DNA from: Fulvitalea axinellae
Lineage (GTDB): Bacteria > Bacteroidota > Bacteroidia > Cytophagales > Cyclobacteriaceae
Reading direction: 5' to 3'
NCBI RefSeq assembly: GCF_036492835.1
Contig: NZ_AP025321.1
Span: 1-64,000, forward strand
Length of the DNA stretch: 64,000 nucleotides
Part shown: positions 30,024 to 50,325 of the stretch, piece after piece
Numbering within the stretch: position 1 is the stretch's first letter
How the letters are laid out: the number at the start of each line of letters is the position of its first letter
Notes under the pieces: model-generated
Database searches by the model: none
Told to the model about the DNA's origin: nothing
What the model saw: only the letters and a program-made list of their open reading frames with translations
Position numbers and translations under genes: made by a program

Positions 30024-30054
30024 CTACTTATTTGATCTTATGGATTATTGGGAT

Positions 30055-30380: not shown

Positions 30381-33300
30381 TTATTTATTGCTGGGTCTGT
30401 TGAAATTTTTAGCCTTCCTGTTTTCATTAAATGTTTTATTGAAAGATTTAACATTTTTATTATACATCTTAATGTACTTGTTTTTTTCTGGATCGTTAAG
30501 CCACTGCTCTCTTTTCCCTACAGTCTCAGCATTAAAAAGCGCCCGACTGATAAATCCCTCTTGATCTTGTAAGTATCCATTAGCGACACCTTTTATATAT
30601 TCCTTATAATTCTTAGTTCCTCGTTTAAAGCTGGAATGAGATGTTTGATACATTGCAATTTCAAAATGTTGAAAAACAGCATCTCCAATCCCCTTAAAAT
30701 GTTGATCTTCGTGAACAAATGTATTTATAAGATTGTGATAATTATTGAATAATGTTTCTCCATTTTCTTGTAATCCCATATTTACCGTTAATTTACCATC
30801 TGCTACGGCGGATGCGGCAAGCTTACTTTTTTTATCATTAATAACATTAATACTTTTTATTGGATGAAACGATTTTTTTTGAGACCATATTTTCTTAATA
30901 ACTTTGACTTGGGTAGAAGAAGAAGATTCAGAGAATAGAATACTTTCTCTATATACAGGAGGTGTGGTAGTATTTTTTATAAAAGGTTTAATAAATTTCG
31001 CAAATGATTTAATTGAATTTGCATCACTCTTAATAATACGAATTTCGTCACTGGTGCCATACTTTCCCGCATATCTTCCATCAGCAGTATAATACCATTC
31101 CAAGCCTTCCAGCTCAATCCCATCAATAACCCTATTCTCACTAAAAGCATAAGGCGAATTCCAAGGATAATCAGGAGCCAATGGATCCACCGCAAAAAAC
31201 CTCCCGATCACCGGATCGTGCATCCGGTACTTGTAGTTGACGAAGCCCGTCTCGGTATCGGATTCCTGTCCCTGGAACCCATACCTATACTTCCCTGCGC
31301 TAAAGCTACGCCCTTTCATAGTCAAACCAAAGGGGAAATAGTCGTTGGTGGAAAGCACGTCGGGGTTTCCGTCTGCTGAGGCCCTGTCGGAGATTACCGC
31401 CAGTACGTTGCCCTGGTGGTTGGTGAGCTCGTAGTTTCTCAAACCTACGCGCAGGTCACCGGCTAGGGTGCCCGTCTGCGGGCGGTACAGGCCCAGCCTC
31501 GAACTGCCGTACACGGGCTGTTCGGCCAGCTTTCCGTCCTCGTAGGTGGCCATGGGGTTTCCGGAGGCGTCGCGCAGGTAGCGGGTGGTTCTCTCCTCCC
31601 CGTCAGGTGTCCTCACGGTCTTGCTGATCCGGTTTCCGGAGGCGTCGTAGGCGAAGAGGGTTACCTGCTCTCCCGCGTCCAGGGTTTTGCGCACCCGGGC
31701 CACCTTGCCGTCGGGCAACCAGTCTATGCGCACCTTGGCGGCCTTGTCCTCCAGCAGGTTGCCGATCTCGTCATACACGTAGTTGTCGGGATCGGTCTGT
31801 TCGGCGAAGAGCTCGGGCTTTTCCTCCGGCACGGGCTCGGCCCTGAACAGGGCCTGGGCGCCTGCTTTCACCTCGAATCCCGGCTTCAGGAGGATCTCCC
31901 CGGCCACGGCTTCCACGTCCCTGCCGGCTTCCACGGAGGCGCCGGCGCCCGATACGGTCAGCGAGCGGTAGTGCTCCGGCTGTCTGTCGGGCAGGGGCTC
32001 GTTGTCGTACACCCGCTCGTCCCAGCCGGCGGGCTTGGAGCTTCCGCCCACGGCGGCGGCCACCTCGGGGTCGTTGAGCACGCGGCGCAGGCGGTTGTCG
32101 GCCAGTTCGCCGTCGGCGTCCCGGTTGTAGGAATAGGAGAACTTATGCCCCAGCTCCCCGTCCTTGTTCCTGCGCTCCAGCGTCAGGATATTGCCGTTGG
32201 CGTCGTAGGAATAGTCGGTGTCGTAGGGCATCACGGCCTCGCGCGCGGCGAAGGCCCCCGTGGCGGCCTCGTATCCCCGCAGGCTCCGGGCCTTGACCAG
32301 CCGGTTCAGCTGGTCGTACCTGTACAGCATGCCCTGCACGCCCTTTTCCCTGGCGCCGTCCTGCCGGCCGGCGTAGGGCAGGTCGGTGACCATCCAGGAT
32401 ATGTTGCCGTTGTACAGCCCGCGGTTTCCGTTTTCGGCTTCCTGCTTTTCCCATAGCCCGGCCTCGCCCTTGGGGGCTTTTCCGGCGTTTACGGGGCTGT
32501 AGTCGCCCTCATAGTAGCCCAGCCTGTAGGCGAAGGCGTCCTTGGTCGCGGCGCTTCCGGGATCGGATTCGTCCCCCACGGCGTTCACGCCCTTGAGCCA
32601 TCCCTGCAGGGTGTAGTAGTAGTCCGTTCCCTGCGGGGCGGCCTGTCCCAGCTCCACGCGGCGCAGGGGCCCGTGGGCGTAGTAGCGGTAGGTGGCCTCG
32701 CGGTGCCAGACCAACCTGTCGGCGGAGGTGTGCACCTCCAGCAGGCGGTTGTCGGCGTCGTAGTCGTAGCGGTGGGCGAACTGGTCGGGCTTCCCGAACT
32801 GGTAGAAGACGTAGCTCACGTTTCCGCTGAGCAAATCGTACACGTAGTCGGTCCGCTTCGGATCCAGTCCGGGCTGGCACTGCACCAGGCTCTTGACGTT
32901 GCCGTGTATGTCGTAGCTGTAGTGCGCGGTGACGGCATCGCCTCCGGGGCCCTCCTCCAGGCGCTCGGTCCAGGCCACGCGTTTGCGGAGGTTTTCCGGT
33001 TCGAAGTCTTGCGGAAAGCCTTCCGGCAACAGGTCCTGCGCCGCGCGCCGGTCGTAGTGCGTGCGGGTGACGTGCCTGAGGGTCAGGCCAGTGTCGTCCG
33101 GCCCCGGATAGGCGGGGTTGTTCAGCTTGGCCCGCAGATCGTCGGGGTCGTCGTCGTCATTGTCTTCCCCGTCGTCCATGGACAGGTCGGTTGCGAAGCC
33201 CTCCATCTCGCCGCTTTCCACGGTACGGCCCAGGGCGTCGTACTTGATGTAGGAGGCTTTGTCCTCGCGGGCCTGCCGGGCGTTCTGCGAGAGGCGCAGG

Positions 33301-36300
33301 CGCCCCAGCGCGTCGTAGCGGAAGTGGACGGCTCCCCCGTCGGGGCTCCGTTGCCACGCCAGGCGGTTCAGGGCGTCGTACTGGTAGCGCGTGCGCAGGC
33401 GGTGGGCCGGGTACAGGCTTTCGTCAAGGTTTTCCAGGGCCCCGGGATCGGCGCCGGAGTCCCGCAGGCGTTTTTTGGTTGCGAGCTCGGCCACCTTCGT
33501 CTTGTCCAGCGGCGCCACGCCCTCGGGGGGCACGGTCTCCTTCAGGTTGCCGGCCTGGTCGTAGTAGTAGAGCGTGTAGTGGTGCTCCTTGGGGGTATAC
33601 TCGTAGGCCAGGCGGTCGGTCCTGATATTGTCCATGCAGGCCGTCTCGCTCAGGCGGTAGAACTCCGACATTTTGGCGTCGTAGAGGCTGTCGATGGTTT
33701 GGCGCTTGCGCTCCTCTACGATCCGCTCCACGTTTTTCTCGCACTGCTCGCGCAGGATGTGCGTGTACTCCGTGGCGGTGTAGACGCGGTAGAACCAGTT
33801 GGTGCCGGTGGTGGTCGGGGTCAGGCAGAGGGTGGGGACGGTCCGCTTTATGTCGTATTGTTTGACGATGGGTTGTCCCGGGTCGTATTCGACTCTCCCG
33901 GGGAAGTATACGTATTGTAGGGAGTGGTTTATCCCCCAGTAAGGGGGATGGCTATCGTCGAGATATGACAATGTTTCCAGAGGGTTATTAAATTTTGAAA
34001 CGCTTTCATCCAACTTGATTTTAAGCCGGATATCGCCCATGTGTTTCCGATACACGATTTCTTTTTGGTCCGGATAAAAACCTGAGGGAGTAGCCTGTGC
34101 CCCGTTTTGGGGCTGGACAGTTTTCCAGCCGTCTCCACTGTTGGATTCCCATCGGAAAGAGAAAAGTTGACCGAGCTTATCGGAACAAGTTACCGGGTCG
34201 ATATCACCGGCGTTTATCACCGATCCGTCGGAGAACTCCATTGACACTTCGCTGGCGAACTGTGTGTAATTCCCCAAATGTTCAAAAGGTTGGGACAAGA
34301 GATCCGGGTTTGGTTTCTCCGGATTATCCAAGTCGACAATATTGGTAAACCGCAACTTATTGCCAGATATACTCAAATAATATGATGACCAGCTGTAGTT
34401 ATCATTCTCTTCAGAAATAACAATTTCCTCAATATTGTTATTGTCCAATAACCTACGTGAGTCATGCCAATTTTCTTTTGCGACTATTATTTTTCTTATG
34501 CTATTTCCCCTTAGGGATATCATATCGGTTAGGACCTCCGAGAACTCTTCAATCCTGTTGTTTTCAAGCAACATTACCCTCAATGGGCCGACACTTCCGT
34601 CGTATTCTGACATTTTCCACTTATCCGGAATACTGGTCAACCTGTTGTTGTTCAATGTCAGATGGTAGTATACGTTAGGTCCTTTGTGTGGATACTCCGT
34701 TATTTGGTTTCCATCCAGTCTAAGTACAAAATAAGCTCCGGGCATATCATGGACATCGTGGCCACAATCCTCTTCGCAGGTTGAGGGTGAGAGCTCGGGT
34801 ATAATTTCAATCTTATTGTTTCTGAGGTCAAGTTGTTCCAGAGCGTTTCTGTATTCAATCCAACCAGGTTCGCCCCACTCCGGAACAGGTTCATGCACCT
34901 TGCGATATCCTTTGTAAAGCGATTCGGGGAATACCTCAAAGGAGTTATCCGCCAACGAGAGTAAGCGTAGTTCACTTCGAACCAATTCGCTAAAATTGGA
35001 AGGTAGTGACGACAGTTTATTATGGCTAAGGTCAAGGTCCGCAAGCTGTTTGTTATTGTCGCAAAATGCTTGCGGGATTTCCTCAATCCCAAGATTGGAG
35101 AGCCCTAGGCCTATAAGGTTGGAGAAATGCGCGCCATCGTATAGGCTCGGAGGGATTTCGCCAAAAGGGTTGTCCCCGATATCAAGTTTGGTAAGGTTCG
35201 GGAACTTGCCGTTAAGCCCGAAATCGTGGGGGAGGGAGGTCAGGTCGTTTCCTTTGAGATAAATCTGGCGTATCCGGGCTTCACCGTCTTCCGAACAACC
35301 CGGTATTTGCGTAATCCGGTTGTTGTTGAGTATCAGCGCTTCGGGGAACATGTCCCAGACATTATTCGGAAGGGCGGATATTTCGTTAAACGACAGGTTC
35401 ACCGTTGAGGCGTCTGTCACGCCCCATCCCTGCGGGAATGTGTTCAGGCGGTTATGTGCGAGGTCAATGTCGTACGCATATTGCGGAAGGTCTCCCGACA
35501 TTCCGGTAAATTGGTTGTTGCTAAGGTATAGCTGGCTAAGTTCCTCAAGTCCGCCCAAGTCCGGTATCTGCCCTGAAAGTTGGTTATGGGAAAGGTTAAG
35601 GTCCCCCAGTTGTCCGAGAGTGGAGATTGAGGCGGGGATTGTCCCTGAAAGATTATTGTTCTGCAGGTTAAGAAAATACAGTTGGGGCATATTTCCCAAA
35701 TCGGGAATTGCCCCCGAAAGGTTGTTGTTCTGCAGGTTAAGGTGGTACAGTTGGGACAGGTTACCCAAATCGGGAATTGGTCCGCTGAGATTGTTATCGT
35801 CCAACCGTATAGTGGATAATTGTGTCGAACTGCCAAGGTTGGGAATATGTCCGCTGAGTCGGTTATTATAGAGTTCCAGCCACATAATGTCCTTGAAGCC
35901 GTCCAAAGAGGGTATGGGTCCCTCCAAACTGTTAGACGACAGGTTCAGGTTTTCCAGCTTTTTAAGGTCGCTGAGACTTGAGGGCAACTGTCCTTTTAGG
36001 TTTACCCGTTGGAGATCGATGCCCCTGATATGCCCGTCATATACGGACACCCCCGTCAGGTCCGCGATGTTGGCCGAATTCGGATTCTTGACAAATTCGG
36101 CCCAGGCTTCTTTTCCGTAATCCAATTGCCAATCGTCCCCTCCCGTAGCGTTGTAGAGGTCGACCAGCGCGTCGATTTCCTTTTTCGGGATCGAGGGGTC
36201 GGCCATGTCGGTGTTGGCCGTCGGGGCCACGGCCCCGATCCCCATCACGGCCAGTGCGTCGGCCATGATCTTGGCCTCGTCGCTTTGGACCTGTTTTTCC

Positions 36301-39300
36301 GCCGACTTCCGGCTCAGGGACGGCGGAACGAAGCCCGCGGAGGCCGAGGGGTTTTCCGGCGTCGCCCGTACGGAATTGCCCGAGGCTGACGCCACCCGGG
36401 AGCTCCCCTGTCCGAAGGCGGGGAAGGGTTCGGGTACGAGAATCTCTTTCTCCTCGGCGCATCCGAAGGGGTTCTCTATGACGAATTCCTTCTCGACGAT
36501 ATCGCAATCCTTTTCTTTGAACATCGCTATGATGGCGTCCAGGTCGGGGTCCACGCCCACGTCGGCCTTGTCGAAGAAGCCGAACATGAAGGCCAGGTGT
36601 TTTTTTCTCCGGAAATAGGAGACGATGTGTTCGATTAGGATCTCCTTCTCCCCTTCCTCCAGCACGGTGCCGCACAGCGAGGTCACGGCCTTTATCTGCA
36701 GGTCCACACGGTCGGCGTTTATATCCGTTCCGGTGTTCAGGCTCACGTACCCGTCGTCCAGGCCCAGGGTGTTTTTGAATTTGTCGACCTGATTGTCAAA
36801 ATCGTCCTTGTCCTTCCAGCCGTCGGGAAACGAGGCCTCGGGGTTTTTCTTTTCGGCCATGGCGGGGCAGGACCACTCCTTCTGTTCCTCGCCCTCCCCC
36901 ACTTCTATGCCGTCCCGGGCCATCTCGCGCACCAGGAGTTTCTTGGCCTCCTCGTAATACCCGCGGTAGATGTCCCAGCGCTGCTTGTCGATCTTGTCGG
37001 CAAGCGCCTCGCCGGTCTCGGTGCGGAGCAGTTCGGCGTAGAGCACGTGTACGGGGCTGGCGCCCTTTTCCGGCGCCTTCCAGAAGTCCCTGTCCTGCGG
37101 GTCGGCTATGCGCTCGGCGCTTCCGCGCAGGTCGTCGCCCAGCTCGAACTCCATCAGGTCCCAGAACCGGTCCTCCTTTTTCTTGCCGTACCCTTGGGTG
37201 AAGAAGGGGTCGTGCTCCAGCAGGTATTCCGTCACGGCGAACTCTTCCCGGTACTTGTTCCCGGGCACGGCCAGGGCCTCGTCCCTCAGGGTCTTCCACT
37301 CCCGTTTCCGGCTGAGCTGCATGGCGTACACCTCGCCGGCGACGTTGTCCGCGCAGTACTCGTATTCGCAGTGGCGATCGTGGGCGCGGATATTCTCCTC
37401 GTTTATCTCTATGCCCTTGCCGTCCAGGTCGGAGAGTATCTCGGTCATGATGCTCTCGCACTCGGCGTTGGCGTTGTCGAGGAAGGCCTCGGCGATCAGC
37501 TCCTCGGCTCCGGCGCCTCCGCCGTCGACGGGACAGTCCTCTTTCAGCACGGTTATCATCTCTGTGTAATGCTCCTCGATAGCCTCTATCTCGGCGGTCA
37601 GGTCGATGCTGTTCCGGATCTCCTCGACGCTCCAGTCCCGCACGCGCACCTCCTTGTACACGGCGTATTCCCCTATTTCCGCGAGGACGGCGGTCATGGG
37701 TTCGGGCTCAAGGGCGCTGACGGCCTCGCAGTTCGAGGCGTTAAGGTCGGCGGTCAGGATATCGGTCACCTTGCCGGAAGGGTTGCGCAGGGGCACGCGT
37801 TCGCCGGCCGGGTCTATCAGGTAGAACGTCACCGCGTAGCGGCACTCCATGCATCCCGCCACGGCGATTTCTTTGGCCTGCGCGGCCAGGTTGTAGGTGA
37901 AGGTGTAGGCGGTGTTGGGCGCCACGTTCAGGAATCGGTATTCGGTGATCCTGCGGTCGCCCGAAGTGACGTGCCGGCCGGTGAGGTCCACCTCCAGCGT
38001 CTGGCTCCCCTCCCCGATGCTCGAGAGCGGATCAACGTTTCCGGGGGCCTCTCCGGTGAGCGATGTGGCAACGGTCTTGCCCCTCAGGTCGGTGTAGGCC
38101 AGGGAGGCCTGCCCGTTGGGGTCCACGGTGGCTTTTTTGCGGTATTGCGAAGCGTCCCCGGCGTTGGGGCCGAACAGGCGGTAGAGTTCCTCCTGCGAGG
38201 GGTCGGTGTAGAAGTGCCTTACGGCCCTTCCCCCGCCGTCTCGGAAGGCCTCCCCGGCGCCGGCCTGGCGCCGTACCCTGCCGGTGGCGTCGCGGGTGTA
38301 TTCGGTGTGGGCGTAGGCGTAACCTTCGGCGTCGGGAATCATGGCGCCCGCCTGGGTGTTGGCGTCGGGGTTGCGGGGGGAGTAGTACCTCGCGGCGCCG
38401 GACCCGTCGTCGAGCTTCGCGTTTTCGGCCCTGCCGTTGTTGTAGAGGTTCCGCTCTTTCCCCCGTTTCCCTCCGGGCGTGGCGAAGGCGTTGAAATCGG
38501 GGATATAGTCGAGCGTGCGCTCTTGGGCGGGAACCGCCAGCGGCGTGGCGGAGGGGCGCCCTTCGTAGTCGTAGAAATTCTCTGCCACGGCCACGCGGTT
38601 TTCGGTGCCCAGGTCGGTGATGGCTTGCCTGTTGCGCATGCCGTCGTCGAAGTAGCTTACGGAGGTCTTGCGTTTGCCCTCCTCGGCGAATCCGGTGACG
38701 CGTTGCCAGTGCTCGCCGGACTTGCCGGCTATCTGCATGCCGTAGTTCTTGTAGTCCCAGCCTTCGGCCCCGGCGAACATCCAGGGGCCCGTTTCCCTTG
38801 CGGTTCCGCCTTTTCCGTCATCGGTATAGGCCACGGCCCGCACGCGGGCGAATATCCTGCCTTCGGGATGCAGGGCGTCGATGTGGATCCGGGTGTCCCG
38901 GACGCTTACGCGTACGGGTTCCTTGTAGGTGTAGGGGTCGGTGATTCCGGGTTCGTAACCTCCGTCCCGCATGTCGACGAACACCCACTCGGCGTCGTAT
39001 TCGGCCACGCCCGCTCCGGCGGACTCCCAGGAGAGCAGGGCCCGGTGCGATTTGGCGCGGACATTGTCCAGGTGGACCCCGAACTCCGTCTCCAGGTCGG
39101 CCTCGGGTTTCGAGTGCCAGTTTTCGGTCAGTTCTACGCCGTCGACGGGTACTTTACCCTCGGTGGTGATGGAGGTGACGGCCAGGCTGTATTGGTTGCC
39201 TCCGTCGCAGTCGAGGTCGTTGCCGGTGTGGAAACGGCGCTGGGCGTAGCGTCCGGCCCGTGAGTCTAGCGAAAGGGAGAACACGGCCAGAGGCTCTTCC

Positions 39301-39641: not shown

Positions 39642-39663
39642 GTCGTGTCGGTTTAAAAATATT
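36128..39663 (-). repeat. RHS duplication, N-terminal block (partner 46574-50109)
   Basis: This block and 46574-50109 align without a gap at a constant offset of 10446 nt, from 22 nt upstream of the ATG to the GGDDW codons. Differences are scattered, mostly single bases. Confidence 0.9.
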
Positions 39664-40275
39664 CTCCGGTTCCGCCTTAAAAGTTGGGGACGGAACGTCA
39701 TTGGTTTTAAAAACTATGCCTTACCACAAAGGGGGAAGCCTAAGTTAAAAAGCTACCGTTTTGCCCTTTGTCGATTAATACCCTATCGTTATCTCTAGAT
39801 ACCGCACTATAAGCGGCTTGGACTATTTGCATATCACTACCGTGAATGAATTATATTTTTCAGGTAGGGAAATTTAGGGTGAAGGCAATAAGTATATATC
39901 AAGCAATAAATATAAAAATAATTTGTAACATGTTATTATGTTTCTGTGATATAGAAAATGAATGTTAAAAATTATAACAATTAATAATACGTATTGTAAT
40001 CCTTTATAAAACTTATAGAGGCTTTATCGCTCCTCTTTTTGACTTTTTTTGTTTGTATTATATCACTCTCATGCATGTTTGTTGAGCCCTTCGAGTTCTT
40101 AGTTTTCTGTTGAAAAGAAAACCCGCTAAACATAAAAAATCCGGCATGCCATACACACCGGATTTTCCATGCATTTTTTATTGATACAGCCCTTGCGTTA
40201 CAGTCAAATGGCCAATGCGCTCGGCGTGAGTTTCCGGCTAGGACATATACTTGTGTTAGCGGGGAGGGGGTAAAT
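39642..40275. other. Intergenic region between the two RHS loci
   Basis: 634 nt with no gene. The first 22 nt (39642-39663) are shared with the region upstream of the second RHS gene. Then comes AT-rich DNA presumably carrying the promoter of RHS 1, then R2 with its terminator (40101-40243). Confidence 0.65.
40101..40243 (-). repeat. R2: conserved block downstream of RHS locus 2
   Basis: Homologous to R1 (30055-30197). Its terminator is stronger: AAATCCGG (40137-40144) pairs with CCGGATTT (40158-40165), continuing into a T6 run on the minus strand. It lies 32 nt past the stop of the small lipoprotein gene. Confidence 0.85.
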
Positions 40276-40746
40276 CTAGATACTAATGATATTCTTCACA
40301 CAATCAAAGATAACAGTATCCTGTTTATCAATAATTGTTTGTAGTCTCATGCCTACAGTCGGTACAGCTACTCCAGTATGATTTTTCTTTCTGAATCTAC
40401 CGTAGTGTGTGATTTCGTAAACACCATGAAATACTTCATCATCTGAAGATTTGATTTCTAAATACATAATTCCATCTTTTCGAAACATTCTCCATGTGCT
40501 TTCACACATGTGTCGGGTATTTTCCATCTCATGCTTATCTAAAAGAACAGGGAAAACACAAGTTAAATCTTTGTTAAGAAAGAAATAATGACATGAAATA
40601 GGCAAGTCCCATTTAGATACTTTTTTTCCGTTAATAATTGCAAATTGTATGCTCCAGGAACCCTCTAAATGTGTCCATCTGGGTTTACATCCTAACATTA
40701 TTAAACTAATAGCAATGCATATTAACGCTGAATTTATTGATTGCAT
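40276..40746 (-). CDS. Small lipoprotein, possible immunity protein for the RHS 2 tip
   Basis: 156 residues. Lipoprotein signal (MQSINSALICIAISLIMLGC) with lipobox MLGC. The mature part starts THLEGSWSIQFAIINGKKVS and is rich in beta-type sequence, like lipocalin-like lipoproteins of Bacteroidetes. It starts 11 nt after the RHS 2 stop and is as AT-rich as the tip itself, but absent from RHS locus 1. A small gene directly behind a polymorphic-toxin tip is usually its immunity gene; here this is inference from position. A membrane-anchored immunity protein would fit a toxin acting in the periplasm or envelope. Confidence 0.65.
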   Translation of the reverse strand: MQSINSALICIAISLIMLGCKPRWTHLEGSWSIQFAIINGKKVSKWDLPISCHYFFLNKDLTCVFPVLLDKHEMENTRHMCESTWRMFRKDGIMYLEIKSSDDEVFHGVYEITHYGRFRKKNHTGVAVPTVGMRLQTIIDKQDTVIFDCVKNIISI

Positions 40747-40757
40747 AAATATTTTTA

Positions 40758-43700
40758 CTAAAGGGGGAAGCTTTTTATGAATTCTATAAATTTTCTGTCG
40801 TTGAAGGCATCTCTTTTCGCCTGATCGAATTGGCCTTTTAAATAGAAAGGATCTTTCTTTTTATCATATTTGTAAATAGTTGGATTTTTCGATATTTCAT
40901 TAACGATTTTCATACCTATCTCATAGATTTCTTTGTTTTTTGAGGGGTTGACCCCCGTTAACACAACATTAGATATGGCGCCTAAGTCTTGTTTATTTTT
41001 AAATTTTTCAGGGAACCAATCTTTATTTATTGCGATTTCCATGTCCTTAATGACATTATTTGCGAATAATAAACGATGAGACTCTATAAGCTCCATATCC
41101 TTATTGTTGGCGTATATATTATATGCTTCCAATCCAAATTTTAAGACTTCAAGAGTAACGGAAATGGCAGAGGTTGCCCGCGTTTTCATTACATTATAGG
41201 TCATACCATTAAGAAACCGCTGTGATTGGAATTTTGGATTATATTTATATCGTCCCATACCCTCTACTTCATGCCTTCCCGTAACATAATGAGGATCATT
41301 CGCTCCATATCCATTGTCAAGGTTTAGCATGTCAGGGAAGGTTGGAAGTGCGGGAGCCTCTATTTGTCCTACTAACGTTGATTTTCCGATGTATCCTGGG
41401 TCCCAAGTGCTTACTAAATTGTGGAAGTTGTCTTCTTCAACGGCAGCTATCTCTGAGCTTCTCCAAGCGGTCCTAAATCCTAGGTTCATATTATCGAGAT
41501 TAATGTGCAGTTCTCCGTTTGTAACCTTTACACGAGCCTCATCTTTATTTAAATATTCTAACCCGTCTAGGTCTACCCCGTCAATCGGGCGGTTAGAAGC
41601 AAATTGATAAGGCGTCAACATCGGGTAACTTTTTGTTAACGGATCCACGCTCAAGAATTTTGCTATAGCCGGGTTATAAATCCTGAACCCGTAGTCATAA
41701 TTCGTATGACCACCCCACTCGCCGTTCTCATCCTTCTCCTTGCCGTTGAACCCATACCTATACTTTCCCGCACTAAAGCTACGCCCTTTCATGGTCAAAC
41801 CAAAGGGGAAATAGTCGTTGGTGGAAAGCACGTCGGGGTTTCCGTCTGCTGAGGCTTTGTCGGAGATTACCGCCAGCACGTTGCCCAGGTGGTTGGTGAG
41901 CTCGTAGTTGCGCAACCCTACGCGCAGGTCTCCCGCCGGGGTGCCCGTCCGCGGGCGGTACAGGCCGAGCCTCGAACTGCCGTACACGGGCTGTTCGGCC
42001 AGCTTACCGTCCTCGTAGGTGGCCATGGGGTTTCCGGAGGCGTCGCGCAGGTAGTGGGTGGTTCTCTCCTCCCCGTCAGGTGTCCTCACGGTCTTGCTTA
42101 TGCGGTTTCCGGAGGCGTCGTAGGCGAAAAGGGTCACCTGCTCTCCCGCGTCCAGGGTTTTGCGCACCCGGGCCACCTTGCCGTCGGGCAACCAGTCTAT
42201 GCGCACCTTGGCGGCCTTGTCCTCCAGAAGGTTGCCGATCTCGTCATACACGTAGTTGTCGGGATCGGTCTGTTCGGCGAAGAGCTCGGGCTTTTCCTCC
42301 GGCACTGGCTCGGCCCTGAACAGGGCCTGGGCGCCGGCCTTCACCTCGAATCCCGGCTTCAGGAGGATCTCCCCGGCCACGGCTTCCACGTCCCTGCCGG
42401 CTTCCACGGAGGCGCCGGCGCCCGAGACGGTCAGCGAGCGGTAGTGCTCCGGCTGTCTGTCGGGCAGGGGCTCGTTGTCGTACACCCTCTCGTCCCAGCC
42501 GGCGGGCTTGGAGCTTCCGCCCACGGCGGCGGCCACCTCGGGATCGTTGAGTACGCGGCGCAGGCGGTTGTCGGCCAGTTCGCCGTCGGCGTCCCGGTTG
42601 TAGGAATAGGAGAACTTATGCCCCAGCTCCCCGTCCTTGTTCCTGCGCTCCAGCGTCAGGATATTGCCGTTGGCGTCGTAGGAATAGTCGGTGTCGTAGG
42701 GCATCACGGCTTCGCGCGCGGCGAAGGCCCCCGTGGCGGCCGCATAGCCCGAAAGACTCCGGGCCTTGACCAGCCGGTTCAGCTGGTCGTACCTGTACAG
42801 CATGCCCTGCACGCCCTTCTCCCTGGCGCCGTCCTGTTCGCCGGCGTAGGGCAGGTCGGTGACCATCCAGGATATGTTGCCGTTGTACAGCCCGCGGTTG
42901 CCGTTTTCGGCCTCCTGCTTTTCCCATAGCCCGGCCTCGCCTTTGGGGGCTTTTCCGGCGTTTACGGGGCTGTAGTCGCCCTCATAGTAGCCCAGCCTGT
43001 AGGCGAAGGCGTCCTTGGCCGCGGCGCTTCCGGGGTCGGATTCGTCCCCCACGGCGTTCACGCCCTTGAGCCATCCCTGCAGGGTGTAGTAGTAGTCCGT
43101 CCCCTGCGGGGCGGCGGCCTGGCCCAGCTCCACGCGGCGCAGGGGCCCGTGGGCGTAGTAGCGGTAGGTGGCTTCGCGGTGCCACACCAGCCTGTCGGCG
43201 GAGGTGTGCACCTCCAGCAGGCGGTTGTCGGCGTCGTAGTCGTAGCGGTGGGCGAACTGGTCGGGCTTTCCGAACTGGTAGAAGACGTAGTTCACGTTTC
43301 CGCTGAGCAAATCGTACACGTAGTCGGTCCGCTTCGGCTCCAGTCCGGACTGGCACTGCACCAGGCTCTTGACATTGCCGTGTATGTCGTAGCTGTAGTG
43401 CGCGGTGACGGCCTCGCCTCCGGGCCCCTCCTCCAGGCGCTCGGTCCAGGATACCCGCTTGCGGAGGTTTTCCGGTTCGAAGTCCTGCGGAAAGCCTTCC
43501 GGCAACAGGTCCTGCGCCGCGCGGCGGTCGTAGTGCGTGCGGGTGACGTGCCTGAGGGTCAGGCCCGCGTCGTCCGGCCCCGGATAGGCGGGGTTGTTCA
43601 GCTTGTCCCGCAGGTCGCCGGGGTCGTCGTCGTCATTGCTTTCCCCGTCGTCCATGGACAGGTCGGTGGCGAATCCCTCCATCTCGCCGCTCTCCACGGT

Positions 43701-46700
43701 ACGGCCCAGGGCGTCGTACTTGATATAGGAGGCCTTGTCCTCTCGGGCCTGCCGGGCGTTCTGCGAGAGGCGCAGGCGCCCCAGCGCGTCGTAGCGGAAG
43801 TGGACGGCTCCCCCGTCGGGGCTCCGTTGCCACGCCAGGCGGTTCAGGGCGTCATATTGGTAGCGCGTGCGCAGGCGGTGGGCCGGGTACAGGCTTTCGT
43901 CCAGGTTTTCCAGGGCCCCGGGATCGACGCCGGAGTCCCGCAGGCGTTTTTTGGCCGCGAGTTCGGCCACCTTCGCCTTGTCCAGCGGGGCCACGCCCTC
44001 GGGGGGCACGGTCTCTTTCAGGTTGCCGGCCTGGTCGTAGTAGTAGAGCGTGTAGTGGTGCTCCTTGGGGGTATACTCGTAGGCCAGGCGGTCGGTCCTG
44101 ATATTGTCCATGCAGGCCGTCTCGCTCAGGCGGTAGAACTCCGACATTTTGGCGCTGTAGAGGCTGTCGACGGTTTGGCGCTTGCGCTCCTCTACGATCC
44201 GCTCCACGTTTTTCTCGCACTGCTCGCGCAGTATGTGCGTGTACTCCGTGGCGGTGTAGACGCGGTAGAACCAGTGGGTGCCGGTGGTGGTAGGGTTTAG
44301 GCAGAGGGTGGGGCGTTTGTTCTCTATCTCGTATTCTTTGACAACCAAAGTTTCGGGAGTAACTAAGTGGCTCCTGTTGGACTCCCAAGGGTTTGAGGGG
44401 CTGAAGTGTTTGTGGTCCAGCAAAAGGCTTGAAAAATAGTCCCCGTGATTAATCCCCCCGTTATCATAGCCTTCAAAAATATTGGGAAGACTTTCGTTGA
44501 CGTAATGTTTCTGCTTGTCAATTTGCTGATGGTTAAACTTAATGCTCAGCTTCAGCCTTTCCATACCGTCTGCTAAAGAGACCTCTCTCTGGCTGGGCGA
44601 GAAGCCGTCCGCATCCATATCTGTCTTGTCCCCGGGCAGTACCTGTTTCCAGCCGAGGTCTGTCTCGTATTCCCATTTGAAAGAGAAAAGGCTTCCGTAT
44701 TCGGACGAGCACGTAACGGGATCGAACATCTGGGCGGATACGAGGGATCTGTCCGCCAATTCGTATTTAACGGAACTTTTCCCCTGAATAAAGTTCGGGA
44801 GCTTAAAAATGATGGGTTCCTGAACGCCTTCCCGGACATTCAGGATTTCTTCCGATTTTATAATGTCCGTATACCTTAGGCCGTTATTGGGGTACACAAG
44901 CAAATCGACACCCAGCTCCGGCCCCTCAAACACTTTCAGAAAATCCAAATTCTCCATTCCGCTATGCTCCAACAGAACACCGCTTTCGTGGGTTTTATGT
45001 GGCCATGACGGAATGGATTTTGAAATCCTGTTGCCGTTTAGTACCGCTTGGGTGGCGTAAATATTTTGGTAGGTGTCAATTTCGTTATAACTCAGGTCCA
45101 AAAAGCGCAGGATTTCGTAGAAAGGCAGATAACCTTCGGGTAGCTCCGCCCCGTCCGGCATTTCGGCCGTCCAAGGCGTGGGAATCTTTGTCAACCTGTT
45201 GTGTCTCAAGGATAGTCCAGGATGTACCTTGGGGCTTCCCCACGGGTAGTCGGTCAGAAGGTTATGGTCCAACCGGAGATGGTGGAACTTATTGTCGGCT
45301 TCCTGATGGCCGCAGTCGTAACAATGGTGGTTAAAAGGGTGTATCAGTTTAGGCAGTTCCGAAATCATATTCCGGGACAAGTCCAATGTTGATATTCCCC
45401 TATATTCCACCTCTTCCTCACCCCAATCGTCCGTAATGGTAACCGCGTACGCTTTGCTTAGCATCTGGGGCATTTCCTGAAACCTGTTTCCCGCCAAAAA
45501 AAGTCGCTCCAGCCCGGAACGGATAAGGTTTTCAAATCCCGACGGAATATTTAGCAACAAATTGTCGTTGAGGTCCAAAGTGTTCAGTCCCGCAAATTTT
45601 TGGCAGAACGCGGCAGGGACAGCCTCTATCTTGGCGCCCGCCACCCCAAGAGTTTTTAGGTTTCCGAACCGTGACGGATCCATCAAATCGTCGAGAACGG
45701 ATGGCGACAGTTTGTTTCCTCCGATGTCGAGGACCTTTAGGCCGGGGAAAAGATCATTTTTGCCGAAATCACCGGGCAGTGCCAGAAGTTTATTGTTGCG
45801 GAGATATATCTGTTTGGTGTTTCCGCTTCCGGAAGGAAGACTTGAGATTTCGTTGTTGTTGAGGAAAATTGAGCCGTAGGTCTTTGCCCAGAAGTTTTCC
45901 GGGAGTCCGGACAGTTGGTTATAGGATAAAAACACTACGGGCATAGCGTATAAACCCTCGTAATCCCCTTCATAATCAGGCCGGGGAATGGAGAGGCTTT
46001 CGGGAATCCCCCGGACCAAGTTGTTCGAAAAGTTAAGCAGGGTTATATTTTTGGAAGTGATCCTGTCGGGAAGTCCGACGATCTTGTTGCTGTTTATGTC
46101 GAATTTTTCCAGATAAGTCAATTCTCCCAGATCCGGAATTTTACCGTCCAGACTGTTATGGTGGAGAATCACCACCCTCAAGTTTTCAAGTTGGGAGATC
46201 GATGGGGACACAGGGCCGGAGAACGCGTTCGCGCTAAGGTCAAGGGTCTCCAGGTCCGCAAAGGCCGAAAGGTCCGGCATTTCCCCCGAAAGGCTGTTGG
46301 AGGCCAAAACCAGCGTGGTTAGGCCGGGCATATCGAGTGGGGGGACGCTTCCCCGGAGTTTGTTGTTTTCCAGATTCAGGGAGGTAAGCTTCCTGAAGTC
46401 GTTGATACTGGCCGGAATGTTTCCGTCAAGCGAAGCCGAATACAGTTCTATTCCCGTCACGTGCCCGTCCATTACGGTCAAGCCCGCAAGGTCCGAAACG
46501 GACACCGATGCCGGGTCCTGGACAAAAGATTTCCACAGGGCTTTGCTTTCGGGATAGAGATAATAGCTTCCGTGCCAATCGTCCCCTCCCGTAGCGTTGT
46601 AGAGGTCGACCAGCGCGTCGATTTCCTTTTTGGGGATAGAGGGGTTGGCCATGTCGGTGTTGGCTGTCGGGGCCACGGCCCCGATCCCCATCACGGCCAA

Positions 46701-49700
46701 GGCGTCGGCCATGATCTTGTCCTCGTCGCTTTGGACCTGTTTTTCCGCCGACTTCCGGCTCAGGGACGGCGGAACGAAGCCCGCGGAGGCCGAGGGGTTT
46801 TCCGGTGCCGCCCGTACGGAATTGCCCGAGGCTGACGCCACCCGGGAGCTCCCCTGTCCGAAGGCGGGGAAGGGTTCGGGCACGACAATCTCTTTCTCCT
46901 CGGCGCATCCGAAGGGGTTCTCTATGACGAACTCCTTCTCGACGATATCGCAATCCTTTTCTTTGAACATCGCTATGATGGCGTCCAGGTCGGGGTCCAC
47001 GCCCACGTCGGCCTTGTCGAAGAAGCCGAACATGAAGGCCAGGTGTTTTTTTCTCCGGAAATAGGAGACGATGTGTTCGGTAAGAATCTCCTTCTCCCCT
47101 TCCTCCAGCACGGTGCCGCACAGCGAGGTCACGGCCTTTATCTGCAGGTCCACACGGTCGGCGTTTATATCCGTTCCGGTGTTCAGGCTCACGTACCCGT
47201 CGTCCAGGCCCAGAGTGTTTTTGAATTTGTCGACCTGATTGTCAAAATCGTCCTTGTCCTTCCACCCGTCGGGGAACGAGGCCTCGGGGTTTTTCTTTTC
47301 GGCCATGGCGGGGCAGGACCACTCCTTCTGTTCCTCGCCCTCCCCCACTTCTATGCCGTCCCGGGCCATCTCGCGCACCAGGAGTTTCTTGGCCTCCTCG
47401 TAATACCCGCGGTAGATGTCCCAGCGCTGCTTGTCGATCTTGTCGGCAAGCGCCTCGCCGGTCTCGGTGCGGAGCAGTTCGGCGTAGAGCACGTGTACGG
47501 GGCTGGCGCCCTTTTCCGGCGCCTTCCAGAAGTCCCTGTCCTGCGGGTCGGCTATGCGCTCGGCGCTTCCGCGCAGGTCGTCGCCCAGCTCGAACTCCAT
47601 CAGGTCCCAGAACCGGTCCTCCTTTTTCTTGCCGTACCCTTGGGTGAAGAAGGGGTCGTGCTCCAGCAGGTATTCCGTCACGGCGAACTCTTCCCGGTAC
47701 TTGTTCCCGGGCACGGCCAGGGCCTCGTCCCTCAGGGCCTTCCACTCCCGTTTCCGGCTGAGCTGCATGGCGTACACCTCGCCGGCGACGTTGTCCGCGC
47801 AGTACTCGTATTCGCAGTGGCGGTCGTGGGCGCGGATATTCTCCTCGTTTATCTCTATGCCCTTATCGTCCAGGTCGGAGAGTATCTCGGTCATGATGCT
47901 CTCGCACTCGGCGTTGGCGTTGTCGAGGAAGGCCTCGGCGATCAGCTCCTCGGCTCCGGCTCCCCCGCCGTCGACGGGACAGTCCTCTTTCAGCACGGTT
48001 ATCATCTCTGTGTAATGCTCCTCGATAGCCTCTATCTCGGCGGTCAGGTCGATGCTGTTCCGGATCTCCTCTACGCTCCAGTCCCGCACCCGGACCTCCT
48101 TGTACACGGCGTATTCCCCGATCTCCGCGAGGACGGCGGTCATGGGTTCGGGCTCAAGGGCGCTGACGGCCTCGCAGTTCGAGGCGTTAAGGTCGGCGGT
48201 CAGGATATCGGTGACTTTGCCGGAGGGGTTGCGCAGGGGCACGCGGTCGCCGGCCGGATCTATCAGGTAGAACGTCACCGCGTAGCGGCACTCCATGCAT
48301 CCCGCCACGGCGATTTCTTTGGCCTGCGCGGCCAGGTTGTAGGTGAAGGTGTAGGCGGTGTTGGGCGCCACGTTCAGGAATCGGTATTCGGTGATCCTGC
48401 GGTCGCCCGAAGTGACGTGCCGGCCGGTGAGGTCCACCTCCAGCGTCTGGCTCCCCTCCCCGATGCTTGCGAGCGGGTCCACGTTTCCGGGGGCCTCTCC
48501 GGTGAGGGCCGTGGCCACGGTTTTTCCCCTCAGGTCGGTGTAGACCAGGGAGGCCTGCCCGTTGGGGTCCACGGTGGCTTTTTTGCGGTATTGCGAGGCG
48601 TCCCCGGCGTTGGGGCCGAACAGGCGGTACAGCTCCTCCTGCGAGGGATCGGTGTAGAAGTGCCTTACGGCCCTTCCCCCGCCGTCTCGGAAGGCCTCCC
48701 CGGCGCCGGCCTGGCGCCGTACCCTGCCGGTGGCGTCGCGGGTGTATTCGGTATGGGCGTAGGCGTAACCTTCGGCGTCGGGAATCATGGCGCCCGCCTG
48801 GGTGTTGGCGTCGGGGTTGCGGGGGGAGTAGTACCTCGCGGCGCCGGACCCGTCGTCGAGCTTCGCGTTTTCGGCCCTGCCGTTGTCGTAGAGGTTCCGC
48901 TCTTTCCCCCGTTTCCCTCCGGGCGTGGCGAAGGCGTTGAAGTCGGGGATATAGTCGAGCGTGCGCTCTTGGGCGGGAACCGCCAGCGGCGTGGCGGAGG
49001 GGCGCCCTTCGTAGTCGTAGAAATTCTCTGCCACGGCCACGCGGTTTTCGGTGCCCAGGTCGGTGATGGCTTGCCTGTTGCGCATGCCGTCGTCGAAGTA
49101 GCTTACGGAGGTCTTGCGTTTGCCCTCCTCGGCGAATCCGGTGACGCGCTGCCAGTGTTCGCCGGACTTGCCGGCTATCTGCATGCCGTAGTTCTTGTAG
49201 TCCCAGCCTTCGGCCCCGGCGAACATCCAGGGGCCCGTTTCCCTTGCGGTTCCGCCTTTTCCGTCATCGGTATAGGCCACGGCCCGCACGCGGGCGAATA
49301 TCCTGCCTTCGGGATGCAGGGCGTCGATGTGGATCCGGGTGTCCCGGACGCTTACGCGTACGGGTTCCTTGTAGGTGTAGGGGTCGGTGATTCCGGGTTC
49401 GTAACCTCCGTCCCGCATGTCGACGAACACCCACTCGGCGTCGTATTCGGAAACGCCCGCTCCGGCGGACTCCCAGGAGAGCAGGGCGCGGTGCGATTTG
49501 GCGCGGACATTGTCCAGGTGGACCCCGAACGTCGCCTCCAGATCGGCCTCGGGTTTCGAGTGCCAGTTTTCGGTCAGCTCCACGCCGTCGACGGGTACTT
49601 TACCCTCGGTTGTAATGGAGGTGACGGCCAGGCTGTATTGGTTGCCTCCGTCGCAGTCGAGGTCGTTGCCGGTGTGGAAACGGCGCTGGGCGTAGCGTCC

Positions 49701-50087
49701 GGCCCGTGAGTCTAGCGAAAGGGAGAACACGGCCAGAGGCTCTTCCTGGCTCGCCTTGCGGAGCTCCACCCCCAGGGTCAGCTTCCAGGGGCCGTCGTCC
49801 AGTTTTCCGAGCCCGTTGTCGGCCAGGACTAGTTCCAGGGCGTACTCGCCCTCGGGGCAGGCGTTGCCCCCGAAGGGGTTGTAGGGCTTGCCCTCCTCCA
49901 GTTCGGAGAGGGGAAAGGTCTTGGCCAAGGCCAGTTTGGCCTTCGTCCGACCGTCGCGCCCGGTGAGGGCCCAGCCGGGGATTTCGGGGCCGTCTTGCGC
50001 CATCGTAGGCGTTATGGCCGTCCATATCGCGAAAAGTGTGGCCAGGGCGCGCAGGCCAGCCTTGGCGATGGGATTCTCGAAAAACAT
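40758..50087 (-). CDS. RHS/YD-repeat protein with a different LRR insert and tip
   Basis: 3109 residues; signal peptide MFFENPIAKAGLRALATLF ... MAQ. Residues 1-1171 and 1924-2780 are nearly identical to the first RHS protein, including at DNA level with no indel in the N-terminal block and a one-codon insertion in the core (GQAAAPQG against GQAAPQG). Residues 1171-1924 are a different LRR block under the same cap (LVDLYNATGGDDW): LTSLNLENNKLRGSVPPLD, LETLDLSANAFSGPVSPS. The tip (2780-3109) starts GFNGKEKDENGEWGG and DPLTKSYPMLTPYQFASNR, is AT-rich and matches no motif I know; an HEVEG sequence is present but is not HExxH. Followed by a candidate immunity lipoprotein. The tip could be a toxin of unknown type. 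Confidence 0.9.
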   Translation of the reverse strand: MFFENPIAKAGLRALATLFAIWTAITPTMAQDGPEIPGWALTGRDGRTKAKLALAKTFPLSELEEGKPYNPFGGNACPEGEYALELVLADNGLGKLDDGPWKLTLGVELRKASQEEPLAVFSLSLDSRAGRYAQRRFHTGNDLDCDGGNQYSLAVTSITTEGKVPVDGVELTENWHSKPEADLEATFGVHLDNVRAKSHRALLSWESAGAGVSEYDAEWVFVDMRDGGYEPGITDPYTYKEPVRVSVRDTRIHIDALHPEGRIFARVRAVAYTDDGKGGTARETGPWMFAGAEGWDYKNYGMQIAGKSGEHWQRVTGFAEEGKRKTSVSYFDDGMRNRQAITDLGTENRVAVAENFYDYEGRPSATPLAVPAQERTLDYIPDFNAFATPGGKRGKERNLYDNGRAENAKLDDGSGAARYYSPRNPDANTQAGAMIPDAEGYAYAHTEYTRDATGRVRRQAGAGEAFRDGGGRAVRHFYTDPSQEELYRLFGPNAGDASQYRKKATVDPNGQASLVYTDLRGKTVATALTGEAPGNVDPLASIGEGSQTLEVDLTGRHVTSGDRRITEYRFLNVAPNTAYTFTYNLAAQAKEIAVAGCMECRYAVTFYLIDPAGDRVPLRNPSGKVTDILTADLNASNCEAVSALEPEPMTAVLAEIGEYAVYKEVRVRDWSVEEIRNSIDLTAEIEAIEEHYTEMITVLKEDCPVDGGGAGAEELIAEAFLDNANAECESIMTEILSDLDDKGIEINEENIRAHDRHCEYEYCADNVAGEVYAMQLSRKREWKALRDEALAVPGNKYREEFAVTEYLLEHDPFFTQGYGKKKEDRFWDLMEFELGDDLRGSAERIADPQDRDFWKAPEKGASPVHVLYAELLRTETGEALADKIDKQRWDIYRGYYEEAKKLLVREMARDGIEVGEGEEQKEWSCPAMAEKKNPEASFPDGWKDKDDFDNQVDKFKNTLGLDDGYVSLNTGTDINADRVDLQIKAVTSLCGTVLEEGEKEILTEHIVSYFRRKKHLAFMFGFFDKADVGVDPDLDAIIAMFKEKDCDIVEKEFVIENPFGCAEEKEIVVPEPFPAFGQGSSRVASASGNSVRAAPENPSASAGFVPPSLSRKSAEKQVQSDEDKIMADALAVMGIGAVAPTANTDMANPSIPKKEIDALVDLYNATGGDDWHGSYYLYPESKALWKSFVQDPASVSVSDLAGLTVMDGHVTGIELYSASLDGNIPASINDFRKLTSLNLENNKLRGSVPPLDMPGLTTLVLASNSLSGEMPDLSAFADLETLDLSANAFSGPVSPSISQLENLRVVILHHNSLDGKIPDLGELTYLEKFDINSNKIVGLPDRITSKNITLLNFSNNLVRGIPESLSIPRPDYEGDYEGLYAMPVVFLSYNQLSGLPENFWAKTYGSIFLNNNEISSLPSGSGNTKQIYLRNNKLLALPGDFGKNDLFPGLKVLDIGGNKLSPSVLDDLMDPSRFGNLKTLGVAGAKIEAVPAAFCQKFAGLNTLDLNDNLLLNIPSGFENLIRSGLERLFLAGNRFQEMPQMLSKAYAVTITDDWGEEEVEYRGISTLDLSRNMISELPKLIHPFNHHCYDCGHQEADNKFHHLRLDHNLLTDYPWGSPKVHPGLSLRHNRLTKIPTPWTAEMPDGAELPEGYLPFYEILRFLDLSYNEIDTYQNIYATQAVLNGNRISKSIPSWPHKTHESGVLLEHSGMENLDFLKVFEGPELGVDLLVYPNNGLRYTDIIKSEEILNVREGVQEPIIFKLPNFIQGKSSVKYELADRSLVSAQMFDPVTCSSEYGSLFSFKWEYETDLGWKQVLPGDKTDMDADGFSPSQREVSLADGMERLKLSIKFNHQQIDKQKHYVNESLPNIFEGYDNGGINHGDYFSSLLLDHKHFSPSNPWESNRSHLVTPETLVVKEYEIENKRPTLCLNPTTTGTHWFYRVYTATEYTHILREQCEKNVERIVEERKRQTVDSLYSAKMSEFYRLSETACMDNIRTDRLAYEYTPKEHHYTLYYYDQAGNLKETVPPEGVAPLDKAKVAELAAKKRLRDSGVDPGALENLDESLYPAHRLRTRYQYDALNRLAWQRSPDGGAVHFRYDALGRLRLSQNARQAREDKASYIKYDALGRTVESGEMEGFATDLSMDDGESNDDDDPGDLRDKLNNPAYPGPDDAGLTLRHVTRTHYDRRAAQDLLPEGFPQDFEPENLRKRVSWTERLEEGPGGEAVTAHYSYDIHGNVKSLVQCQSGLEPKRTDYVYDLLSGNVNYVFYQFGKPDQFAHRYDYDADNRLLEVHTSADRLVWHREATYRYYAHGPLRRVELGQAAAPQGTDYYYTLQGWLKGVNAVGDESDPGSAAAKDAFAYRLGYYEGDYSPVNAGKAPKGEAGLWEKQEAENGNRGLYNGNISWMVTDLPYAGEQDGAREKGVQGMLYRYDQLNRLVKARSLSGYAAATGAFAAREAVMPYDTDYSYDANGNILTLERRNKDGELGHKFSYSYNRDADGELADNRLRRVLNDPEVAAAVGGSSKPAGWDERVYDNEPLPDRQPEHYRSLTVSGAGASVEAGRDVEAVAGEILLKPGFEVKAGAQALFRAEPVPEEKPELFAEQTDPDNYVYDEIGNLLEDKAAKVRIDWLPDGKVARVRKTLDAGEQVTLFAYDASGNRISKTVRTPDGEERTTHYLRDASGNPMATYEDGKLAEQPVYGSSRLGLYRPRTGTPAGDLRVGLRNYELTNHLGNVLAVISDKASADGNPDVLSTNDYFPFGLTMKGRSFSAGKYRYGFNGKEKDENGEWGGHTNYDYGFRIYNPAIAKFLSVDPLTKSYPMLTPYQFASNRPIDGVDLDGLEYLNKDEARVKVTNGELHINLDNMNLGFRTAWRSSEIAAVEEDNFHNLVSTWDPGYIGKSTLVGQIEAPALPTFPDMLNLDNGYGANDPHYVTGRHEVEGMGRYKYNPKFQSQRFLNGMTYNVMKTRATSAISVTLEVLKFGLEAYNIYANNKDMELIESHRLLFANNVIKDMEIAINKDWFPEKFKNKQDLGAISNVVLTGVNPSKNKEIYEIGMKIVNEISKNPTIYKYDKKKDPFYLKGQFDQAKRDAFNDRKFIEFIKSFPL

Positions 50088-50325
50088 GTCGTGTCGGTTT
50101 AAAAATATCTTTTTCCCCGTATGCGAATCCGAATAGCTTCGTAATGGGGCGTAAAAATCTACGTTATTAATGTCCGGAGCACGGAAGCTACCCGCTACGC
50201 TCTTTCTAGGGACGTTTAAGAATTATTTCCCGGTCTGGGTTTTCGGTGGAAAGCAGACTAATCAGAACAGGACTTAGGTGCCTAATACCTGAGTTCAAAG
50301 TCCTAATGGGTTATGCTATAATCTT
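50088..50325. other. Intergenic region upstream of RHS 2
   Basis: 238 nt. 50088-50109 is shared with the RHS 1 upstream region. AGGACTT (50269-50275) pairs with AAGTCCT (50298-50304) around an inner AGGT/ACCT, a hairpin behind the LolA-like gene without a clear T-run. Confidence 0.5.

What the first reader, a model, noticed from the sequence alone, without database searches (positions are those of the whole stretch)
30381..50087. Tandem RHS genes differing by two separate cassette swaps: LRR block and toxin tip
The two 9.3-kb genes are nearly identical except for an internal LRR block (33838-36127 against 44314-46573) and the C-terminal tip (30381-31274 against 40758-41747). Tip exchange is known for RHS proteins. 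A second, independent exchange of an internal LRR recognition-type domain under a fixed cap (LVDLYNATGGDDW) is unusual. It suggests a device that changes both what it binds and what it delivers, with two copies in tandem serving as donor and recipient. This is my best candidate for an undescribed system in the window.
Basis: partly seen in the sequence, partly recalled or inferred. Interest (0 to 1): 0.85.

Follow-up and report, generated by a model that had tools for sequence, protein, structure and literature searches.

The report
RHS toxin pair with two exchanged modules
A bacterium carries, side by side on what looks like a plasmid, two giant toxin-delivery genes that are almost the same except for a probable target-binding domain in the middle and the toxin at the end, which suggests that such weapons can be given a new aim as well as a new payload.

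Summary
The two genes share flanks at dS 0.08-0.12, but the LRR block (33838-36126 / 44314-46572) and the RHS-core-end-plus-tip (30381-31274 / 40758-41747) are saturated at silent sites. Recent duplication with fast evolution in place cannot give this; recombination is needed. The LRR blocks are nevertheless homologous end to end (33-40% aa): old alleles of one domain, not unrelated cassettes. The slot also differs in base composition from the flanks, after correction for amino acids, here and in most LRR-bearing relatives. Of six near-identical RHS pairs compared (not a random sample), all differ at the tip. Two (the window's and G512's) also differ at an internal slot, three are identical there, one differs over its whole C-terminal part. 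So tip and slot change separately. 'Donor and recipient' is not supported: neither LRR block nor either tip has another copy in the genome, and the copies share no LRR or tip DNA. Between genera the slot tracks its backbone, so exchange looks local. Best reading: a polymorphic RHS toxin with a variable internal binding module and a variable payload, like CdiA in logic, not in family. Target binding is inferred, not shown.

The parts
30381..39701 (-). RHS gene 1 (W1), 3106 aa as listed; probable start at 39641 (MFFENP...)
   Evidence: RHS_repeat, Rhs_assc_core; DUF6443 just under its cut-off
40758..50087 (-). RHS gene 2 (W2), 3109 aa
36127..39662 (-). conserved N flank of gene 1 (97.5% to 46573-50108); GC3 0.85
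46573..50108 (-). conserved N flank of gene 2; GC3 0.84
33838..36126 (-). variable internal slot of gene 1: LRR solenoid plus a poorly modelled C-terminal part (Ig-like by resemblance only); GC3 0.55
44314..46572 (-). variable internal slot of gene 2: LRR plus the same kind of C-terminal part; GC3 0.61
31275..33837 (-). conserved RHS flank of gene 1; GC3 0.88
41748..44313 (-). conserved RHS flank of gene 2; GC3 0.88
30381..31274 (-). RHS core end (DPxG block) and tip of gene 1; the DPxG block matches the third RHS gene on the contig better than gene 2
30564..30836 (-). Tox-MPTase2 match (predicted metallopeptidase toxin; HExxH = HEDQH) in the tip of gene 1
   Evidence: 31.1 bits, cut-off 25; motif read
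40758..41747 (-). RHS core end and tip of gene 2; no toxin family matched; a relative exists as an orphan tip in Persicobacter sp. JZB09
40276..40746 (-). 156-aa probable lipoprotein straight after gene 2: candidate immunity protein (inference)
   Evidence: (no family above cut-off)
40100..40243 (-). about 145-bp terminator-like element behind the tip/immunity segment of gene 2
30054..30197 (-). second copy of the element (88%), behind gene 1
35633..35779 (-). 69-bp (one LRR) tandem duplication inside the LRR block of gene 1, 2.1 copies, 83%

Best explanation
These are two secreted RHS polymorphic toxins in tandem. Their backbone (N-terminal block and RHS region) is kept nearly identical by recombination between the copies, or one backbone was copied onto the other. 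Two modules do not follow the backbone: an internal LRR-plus-Ig-like domain in a fixed slot before the RHS region, and the C-terminal toxin tip with the last RHS core motif. SHOWN: the mosaic, its sharp breaks, saturated silent divergence of both modules, different base composition, separability of slot and tip in other genomes, and a core end in gene 1 that matches the third RHS gene of the same contig instead of gene 2. INFERRED: the LRR module binds something on the target (or host) surface, the tip is the payload, and the pair gives the cell two aims and two payloads on one delivery scaffold. In logic this works like CdiA with its variable receptor-binding region and variable toxin.
For: dS 0.078/0.115 in flanks against saturation in LRR and tip. 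LRR blocks homologous end to end and each other's best match among 42 slots. GC3 of the slots 0.53 and 0.59 against 0.85 expected from their amino acids and the flank's codon use (z -26 and -20); in 13 of 14 LRR rows (window pair included; L117/L118 are duplicates) the slot falls below the range of its own flank pieces, median deviation -0.21, against 10 of 27 and -0.05 in the other rows. Six near-identical pairs: tip differs in 6, internal slot in 2 (window, G512), no difference before the end of the RHS region in 3 apart from the extreme N terminus in two, whole C-terminal part different in 1. G512: dS 0.31 in the N flank, 0.77 in the C flank, slot and tip saturated, i.e. segments of different silent age. 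Differences clustered in the window's N flank: all differences 0 of 2000 permutations, synonymous p 0.0008-0.009. Gene 1's DPxG block is 93.5% aa identical to the third RHS gene but 51% to gene 2, while the 300 residues before are 98% gene 2. LRR in the same slot confirmed by Pfam in 10 of 10 LRR-type relatives scanned, and in L120; Laminin_G_3 there in L053, and just under cut-off in L059. LRR solenoid modelled at pLDDT 68-97, mostly above 80; nearest PDB folds are plant LRR receptor ectodomains.
Against: Binding and toxicity are untested. No strain of the same species was available; among the matches listed no non-self N block is more than 41% identical, so exchange between strains was not seen directly. 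Between genera slot identity tracks backbone identity (rho 0.59 over 55 pairs; N block against RHS region 0.52), so the slot is mostly inherited with the backbone. Three of six pairs have an identical slot. In the window's C flank synonymous differences are not clustered (p 0.44-0.66), though all differences are at two of three window sizes (p 0.01, 0.007, 0.16). G512's slot has no LRR, no sharp upstream break (a 68% aa stretch at dS 1.6 lies before it) and its first 430 or so residues differ too. One LRR relative (L106) has the opposite composition shift. Gene 1 has no evident immunity gene.
Confidence: 0.6

Rival explanations
1. No LRR block ever moved. Two old paralogs diverged everywhere, and gene conversion later homogenised only the backbone, leaving LRR and tip behind because they were too different to pair or were kept different by selection.
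For: LRR blocks are mutual best matches over their whole length. Their identity (39%) is like that between slots of genes whose N blocks are about 45-57% identical. N-flank differences are clustered. G512 flanks differ in silent age, dS 0.31 against 0.77.
Against: The low GC3 of the LRR slot also appears in genomes where only one matching backbone was found (L105 = G508, L107 = G486, L103 = G493), so it is not just a by-product of conversion between two copies. C-flank synonymous differences are not clustered.
Confidence: 0.4
2. Recent duplication followed by very fast adaptive change of LRR and tip in place.
For: LRR domains often evolve fast (general knowledge); a 69-bp repeat in gene 1 shows some repeat turnover.
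Against: Silent sites are saturated too (pS 0.69-0.83 across the LRR), against 0.05-0.11 in the flanks; the breaks are sharp.
Confidence: 0.03
3. The LRR/Ig-like module does not aim the toxin: it anchors or folds the protein on the producer's own surface, and its variability reflects drift in a tolerant insertion site.
For: Other relatives lack it or carry other inserts at that place. PMC3482391 (passage) proposes anchoring for SH3 and Laminin-G domains at the N-termini of such toxins.
Against: Reading frame and LRR/cap pattern are kept despite saturated silent divergence, with pN 0.47 below pS 0.76; LRR and Laminin-G are known binding folds.
Confidence: 0.25
4. Assembly chimera.
For: Near-identical tandem copies are a known trap for assemblies (general knowledge).
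Against: Both genes are open over 9.3 kb, the copies differ throughout the flanks, breaks are in frame at or near domain edges, and G512 shows slot and tip differences independently.
Confidence: 0.02

Closest known systems
CdiA effectors with modular receptor-binding domains (PMC5371414; outline and abstract seen)
   Same: A variable central receptor-binding region and a variable C-terminal toxin in one effector; recombination proposed to interchange both.
   Different: CdiA is a two-partner-secreted filamentous haemagglutinin-type protein (recalled); here the scaffold is RHS and the variable block an LRR plus Ig-like domain, with two full copies in tandem. No binding shown here.
Enterobacterial Rhs genes with C-terminal displacement (PMC2935791; passages seen)
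   Same: GC-rich conserved core, AT-rich tip, tips decoupled from cores, orphan tips with partial core (seen here in Persicobacter).
   Different: The passages I saw describe displacement of the C-terminal tip, and N-terminal domains conserved within subfamilies; here a second, internal variable block lies before the RHS region.
Bacteroidota polymorphic toxins with RHS and Tox-MPTase2 (PMC3482391; passages seen)
   Same: RHS toxin, Tox-MPTase2 tip in gene 1; adhesion domains reported in such toxins, some (RicinB, discoidin, bulb lectin) embedded among RHS repeats.
   Different: In the passages I saw, LRR is not in that list of adhesion domains, and no exchange of the internal domain between near-identical copies is described.
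LRR-type variable receptors (lamprey VLR; recalled, not looked up)
   Same: LRR scaffold with divergent versions on constant ends.
   Different: No array of donor LRR cassettes and no further copy of either block found in the genome.

Membership tests
RHS polymorphic toxin | RHS/YD repeats and RHS-associated core | tested here: met
   PF05593 and TIGR03696 above cut-off in both proteins
RHS polymorphic toxin | conserved body with variable C-terminal tip | tested here: met
   tips also differ in the five other near-identical pairs
RHS polymorphic toxin | toxin domain in the tip | tested here: inconclusive
   gene 1: Tox-MPTase2 above cut-off; gene 2: no family. Activity not testable here
RHS polymorphic toxin | immunity gene beside the tip | tested here: inconclusive
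   156-aa lipoprotein after gene 2; nothing evident after gene 1
CdiA (contact-dependent inhibition) | filamentous haemagglutinin-type stalk | tested here: not met
   no such family among Pfam matches at E 0.1 or NCBIfam matches at E 0.01
CdiA (contact-dependent inhibition) | CdiB outer-membrane partner | not tested
   no dedicated search; none among the 19 other window proteins scanned with Pfam
CdiA (contact-dependent inhibition) | central region that binds a receptor on the target | not testable with these tools
   needs binding assays
Cassette-assembled LRR receptor (VLR-like) | store of donor LRR cassettes | tested here: not met
   besides the two genes only weak LRR matches (25-37% identity, on C1 and C13) in the genome
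Tc toxin complex (TcB/TcC) | SpvB/TcdB-type N-terminal domains | tested here: not met
   none among the Pfam matches of the two proteins at E 0.1; DUF6443 instead, just under cut-off

The most novel reading that the evidence does not exclude
RHS toxins of the Cytophagales have a second, general exchange site: an internal slot before the RHS region into which binding domains (LRR plus Ig-like, Laminin-G, others) are placed and replaced independently of the toxin tip, so that targeting and payload recombine separately, and tandem copies on one scaffold give a cell several aim/payload pairs.
Probability: 0.35. Interest if true: 0.75.

Novelty: new variant of a known kind. Interest (0 to 1): 0.55.

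Why it matters
Tip exchange explains how RHS toxins change payload; what decides whom they hit is, to my knowledge, largely open. If the internal LRR slot is the aiming part, this family offers natural pairs with one scaffold and two candidate aims, in which binding can be measured directly. It would extend the two-module logic known from CdiA to another toxin family in another phylum.

Tried and rejected
Donor/recipient model: genome searches with both LRR blocks and both tips found no further copy, only weak LRR matches and RHS core ends; no DNA shared between the two LRR blocks or tips was found with 7-base words. Fast evolution in place: rejected on silent sites. Wide-range LRR exchange: pairwise identities over 13 genes (78 pairs; L118 dropped as a duplicate; L049, whose open frame ends inside the LRR, and L116 and L120 not included) show the slot tracking the backbone outside the window pair. 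LRR as a single-origin trait: the N-block tree of 42 rows needs at least 4 changes with the 15 labels first used and also with 17 after L116 and L120 were added; three changes may be one gain and two losses, so this is weak. In one search L116 and L120 still stood among the 27 'others', and L112 stands there twice. Genome contigs with the LRR block: no relative; with the N-block alignment: 77 loci, 67 frames with both N block and core, 14 with at least one strict LRR motif in the slot; many repeat the G genomes; Hymenobacter montanus (L138) is new and also shows lower slot GC3 (0.66 against 0.80/0.81). Pairs compared end to end but not near-identical: G988, G872. Pairs were picked because the listings showed similar scores or near places; other genomes with two or more matches were not compared (second copies of G675 and G610 were fetched, and not compared), so 2 of 6 is not a rate. 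Slots of G512 (both), L047, L050, L112, L060 and L045 match no Pfam family at E 0.01, so their nature is open; a propeller-like look of G512's is my impression only. Structure of the whole RHS body was not modelled.

Full report
WHAT WAS CHECKED. The window is bases 1-64000 of contig C8 (107,153 bases) of a 7,394,227-base, 15-contig genome. C8 carries a Rep3 initiator (17884-19389) and a ParA-type ATPase (26551-27312), so it is probably a plasmid. Genome size and replicon number are close to Fulvitalea axinellae in Table 1 of PMC10645730 (7,397,925 bp, 15 replicons; passage seen); this identification is an inference.

THE OBSERVATION. Both genes are open over 9.3 kb on the minus strand. They are near-identical in two blocks (97.5% over 3536 bp, 95.8% over 2597 bp) and do not align at DNA level in the LRR block and tip. 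The breaks lie at 36126/46572, 33837/44313 and 31274/41747, in frame and sharp. By codons: N flank 98% aa, dS 0.078; LRR 37% aa, pS 0.76 (saturated); C flank 97% aa, dS 0.115; RHS core end 44% aa and tip 21% aa, both saturated. GC3 is 0.84-0.88 in the flanks, 0.55/0.61 in the LRR blocks, 0.24/0.37 in the tips. A young duplication with fast change in place cannot give this; recombination must separate the modules from the backbone.

WHAT THE MODULES ARE. Pfam finds LRR families in both slots, RHS repeats in both bodies and Tox-MPTase2 (predicted metallopeptidase toxin) in the tip of gene 1; the tip of gene 2 matches nothing. NCBIfam adds the RHS-associated core in both. The two LRR blocks are each other's best match among 42 slots compared, full length. 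A model of gene 1's slot from the two window sequences gives an LRR solenoid (about residues 1170-1600, ten-residue pLDDT means 68-97, mostly above 80) and a poorly modelled remainder; the nearest solved folds are plant LRR receptor ectodomains. After gene 2 comes a 156-aa probable lipoprotein, a candidate immunity protein; after gene 1 none is evident.

A THIRD RHS GENE AND THE TIP. The same contig has a third RHS gene (L045 3924-12143, 2739 aa), 30-48% identical to the other two where it aligns, with only a short LRR-like stretch and an Ig-like stretch in the slot (my reading; no Pfam match). The last 62 residues of the RHS core in gene 1 are 93.5% identical to it (86.6% in DNA) and only 51% to gene 2, while the 300 residues before are 98% gene 2 and 46% third gene. 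Of 41 genes searched by pattern for this motif 32 gave a hit; the GFQGQE type occurs only in gene 1 and the third gene. So the end of gene 1 was probably exchanged with a break at the RYGF motif. Neither tip has another copy in the genome; the RHS core end does, also as a broken orphan piece on contig C10. The tip of gene 2 has a 43-45% relative in Persicobacter sp. JZB09 as an orphan tip with partial core, downstream of another RHS C-terminal part: the displacement pattern of PMC2935791 (passages).

RELATIVES. N-block relatives were found in 45 of 390 genomes of the order and 42 of 391 of the family (own genome counted in both); among the matches listed none exceeds 41% identity outside the genome itself. 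Of the relatives read in full, Pfam confirms LRRs in the same slot in 10 of 10 LRR-type genes scanned plus L120; of the other slots scanned L053 has Laminin_G_3, L059 the same just under cut-off, and the rest nothing recognisable. The slot's GC3, corrected for amino acids by the flank's codon use, deviates by a median of -0.21 in 14 LRR rows (13 below the range of their own flank pieces; L106 opposite; L117 and L118 are duplicates) and -0.05 in 27 other rows (10 below), Mann-Whitney p 0.0002. L116 and L120, which hold LRRs, were still among the others. Rows are not independent, so the p value is indicative only.

PAIRS. Eight same-genome pairs were compared end to end, picked for similar scores or near places in the listings; six have near-identical bodies. 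G960 is identical or nearly so to about residue 2650 of 3180, then differs, apart from one 84% stretch. G1023 diverges from about residue 1496 of 2425 onward. G512 resembles the window's pattern: N flank 95% aa, slot 26%, C flank 90%, tip 21%, with no LRR in the slot; but its first 430 or so residues also differ, and a stretch before the slot is 68% identical at dS 1.6. Its flanks have different silent ages (dS 0.31, 0.77), as segment-wise homogenisation would give. In the window all differences are clustered in the N flank (0 of 2000 permutations) and at two of three window sizes in the C flank (p 0.01, 0.007, 0.16); synonymous ones are clustered in the N flank (p 0.0008-0.009) but not in the C flank (p 0.44-0.66).

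RESULTS AGAINST A FREE-CASSETTE VIEW. Over 55 pairs of relatives the slot follows the backbone (rho 0.59, against 0.52 for N block against RHS region); the window pair (98/39/97) is the outlier. So the data show decoupling inside genomes, not promiscuous exchange between genera. Whether the LRR block moved in, or the backbone was copied over two old paralogs, cannot be decided without strains. No LRR or tip donor copy was found.

HOW IT PROBABLY WORKS. Shown: mosaic and separability. Inferred: the RHS body carries the toxin tip, the LRR/Ig-like module in the fixed slot contacts the target, and two such proteins in tandem give two aim/payload pairs. The closest logic is CdiA (PMC5371414, abstract), whose central region decides the receptor and whose C terminus is the toxin; family membership in CdiA fails (no filamentous haemagglutinin-type match). 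PMC3482391 already notes adhesion domains embedded among RHS repeats (passage). Searches aimed at an internal exchanged LRR or recognition domain in RHS proteins listed no paper whose title or start of abstract describes it; the library holds open-licence papers only and most listed papers were not opened.

VERDICT. Real, well delimited, with one further case elsewhere; a new variant of a known kind. Function of the LRR module remains to be tested.

Noticed in passing
window 30054-30197, 40100-40243; L045 3291-3382; L086-L092: A terminator-like element of about 145 bp follows the three RHS genes of the contig and has 17 matches in the genome, on contigs C6 and C8-C13, none on C1. In 12 of 19 local matches (weak and overlapping ones included) a same-strand frame of 80 aa or more ends within -60 to 150 bp upstream, against 19% of 1000 random places: perhaps a shared 3' arm of toxin/immunity cassettes.
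   Followed up: partly
L045 3924-12143: Third RHS gene on the same contig, with a short LRR-like plus Ig-like stretch at the same slot by eye.
   Followed up: yes
L093 about 5230-5426 (G000:C10:25230-25426): Broken orphan piece of an RHS core end, 78-84% like that of gene 2, with a stop inside, on another contig; an element match lies about 3 kb away.
   Followed up: no
L134 (Persicobacter sp. JZB09 plasmid 3), frames at 3 and 9431: Orphan tip with partial RHS core, related to the tip of gene 2, downstream of another RHS C-terminal part.
   Followed up: partly
window 29018-30023: Transposase frames (DDE_3 in 29271-30023; IS630-like by recall) just downstream of gene 1, where an immunity gene might be expected.
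   Followed up: no
window 51155-62314: 3719-aa protein of Ig/PKD-type repeats upstream of the RHS genes; Aureibacter and Bernardetia plasmids also have large unnamed proteins upstream of their RHS gene.
   Followed up: no
window 1181-15635: Cluster of seven genes, four of them with Laminin_G_3 domains.
   Followed up: no
L105 1848-6251: Slot with 22 strict LRR motifs in two groups, the longest LRR-bearing slot among the LRR-type genes scanned.
   Followed up: no
   Followed up: no
L131 1751-9025 and 9035-16333: Tandem RHS pair nearly identical up to about residue 1496, then mostly 28-62% and unlike at the tip.
   Followed up: partly
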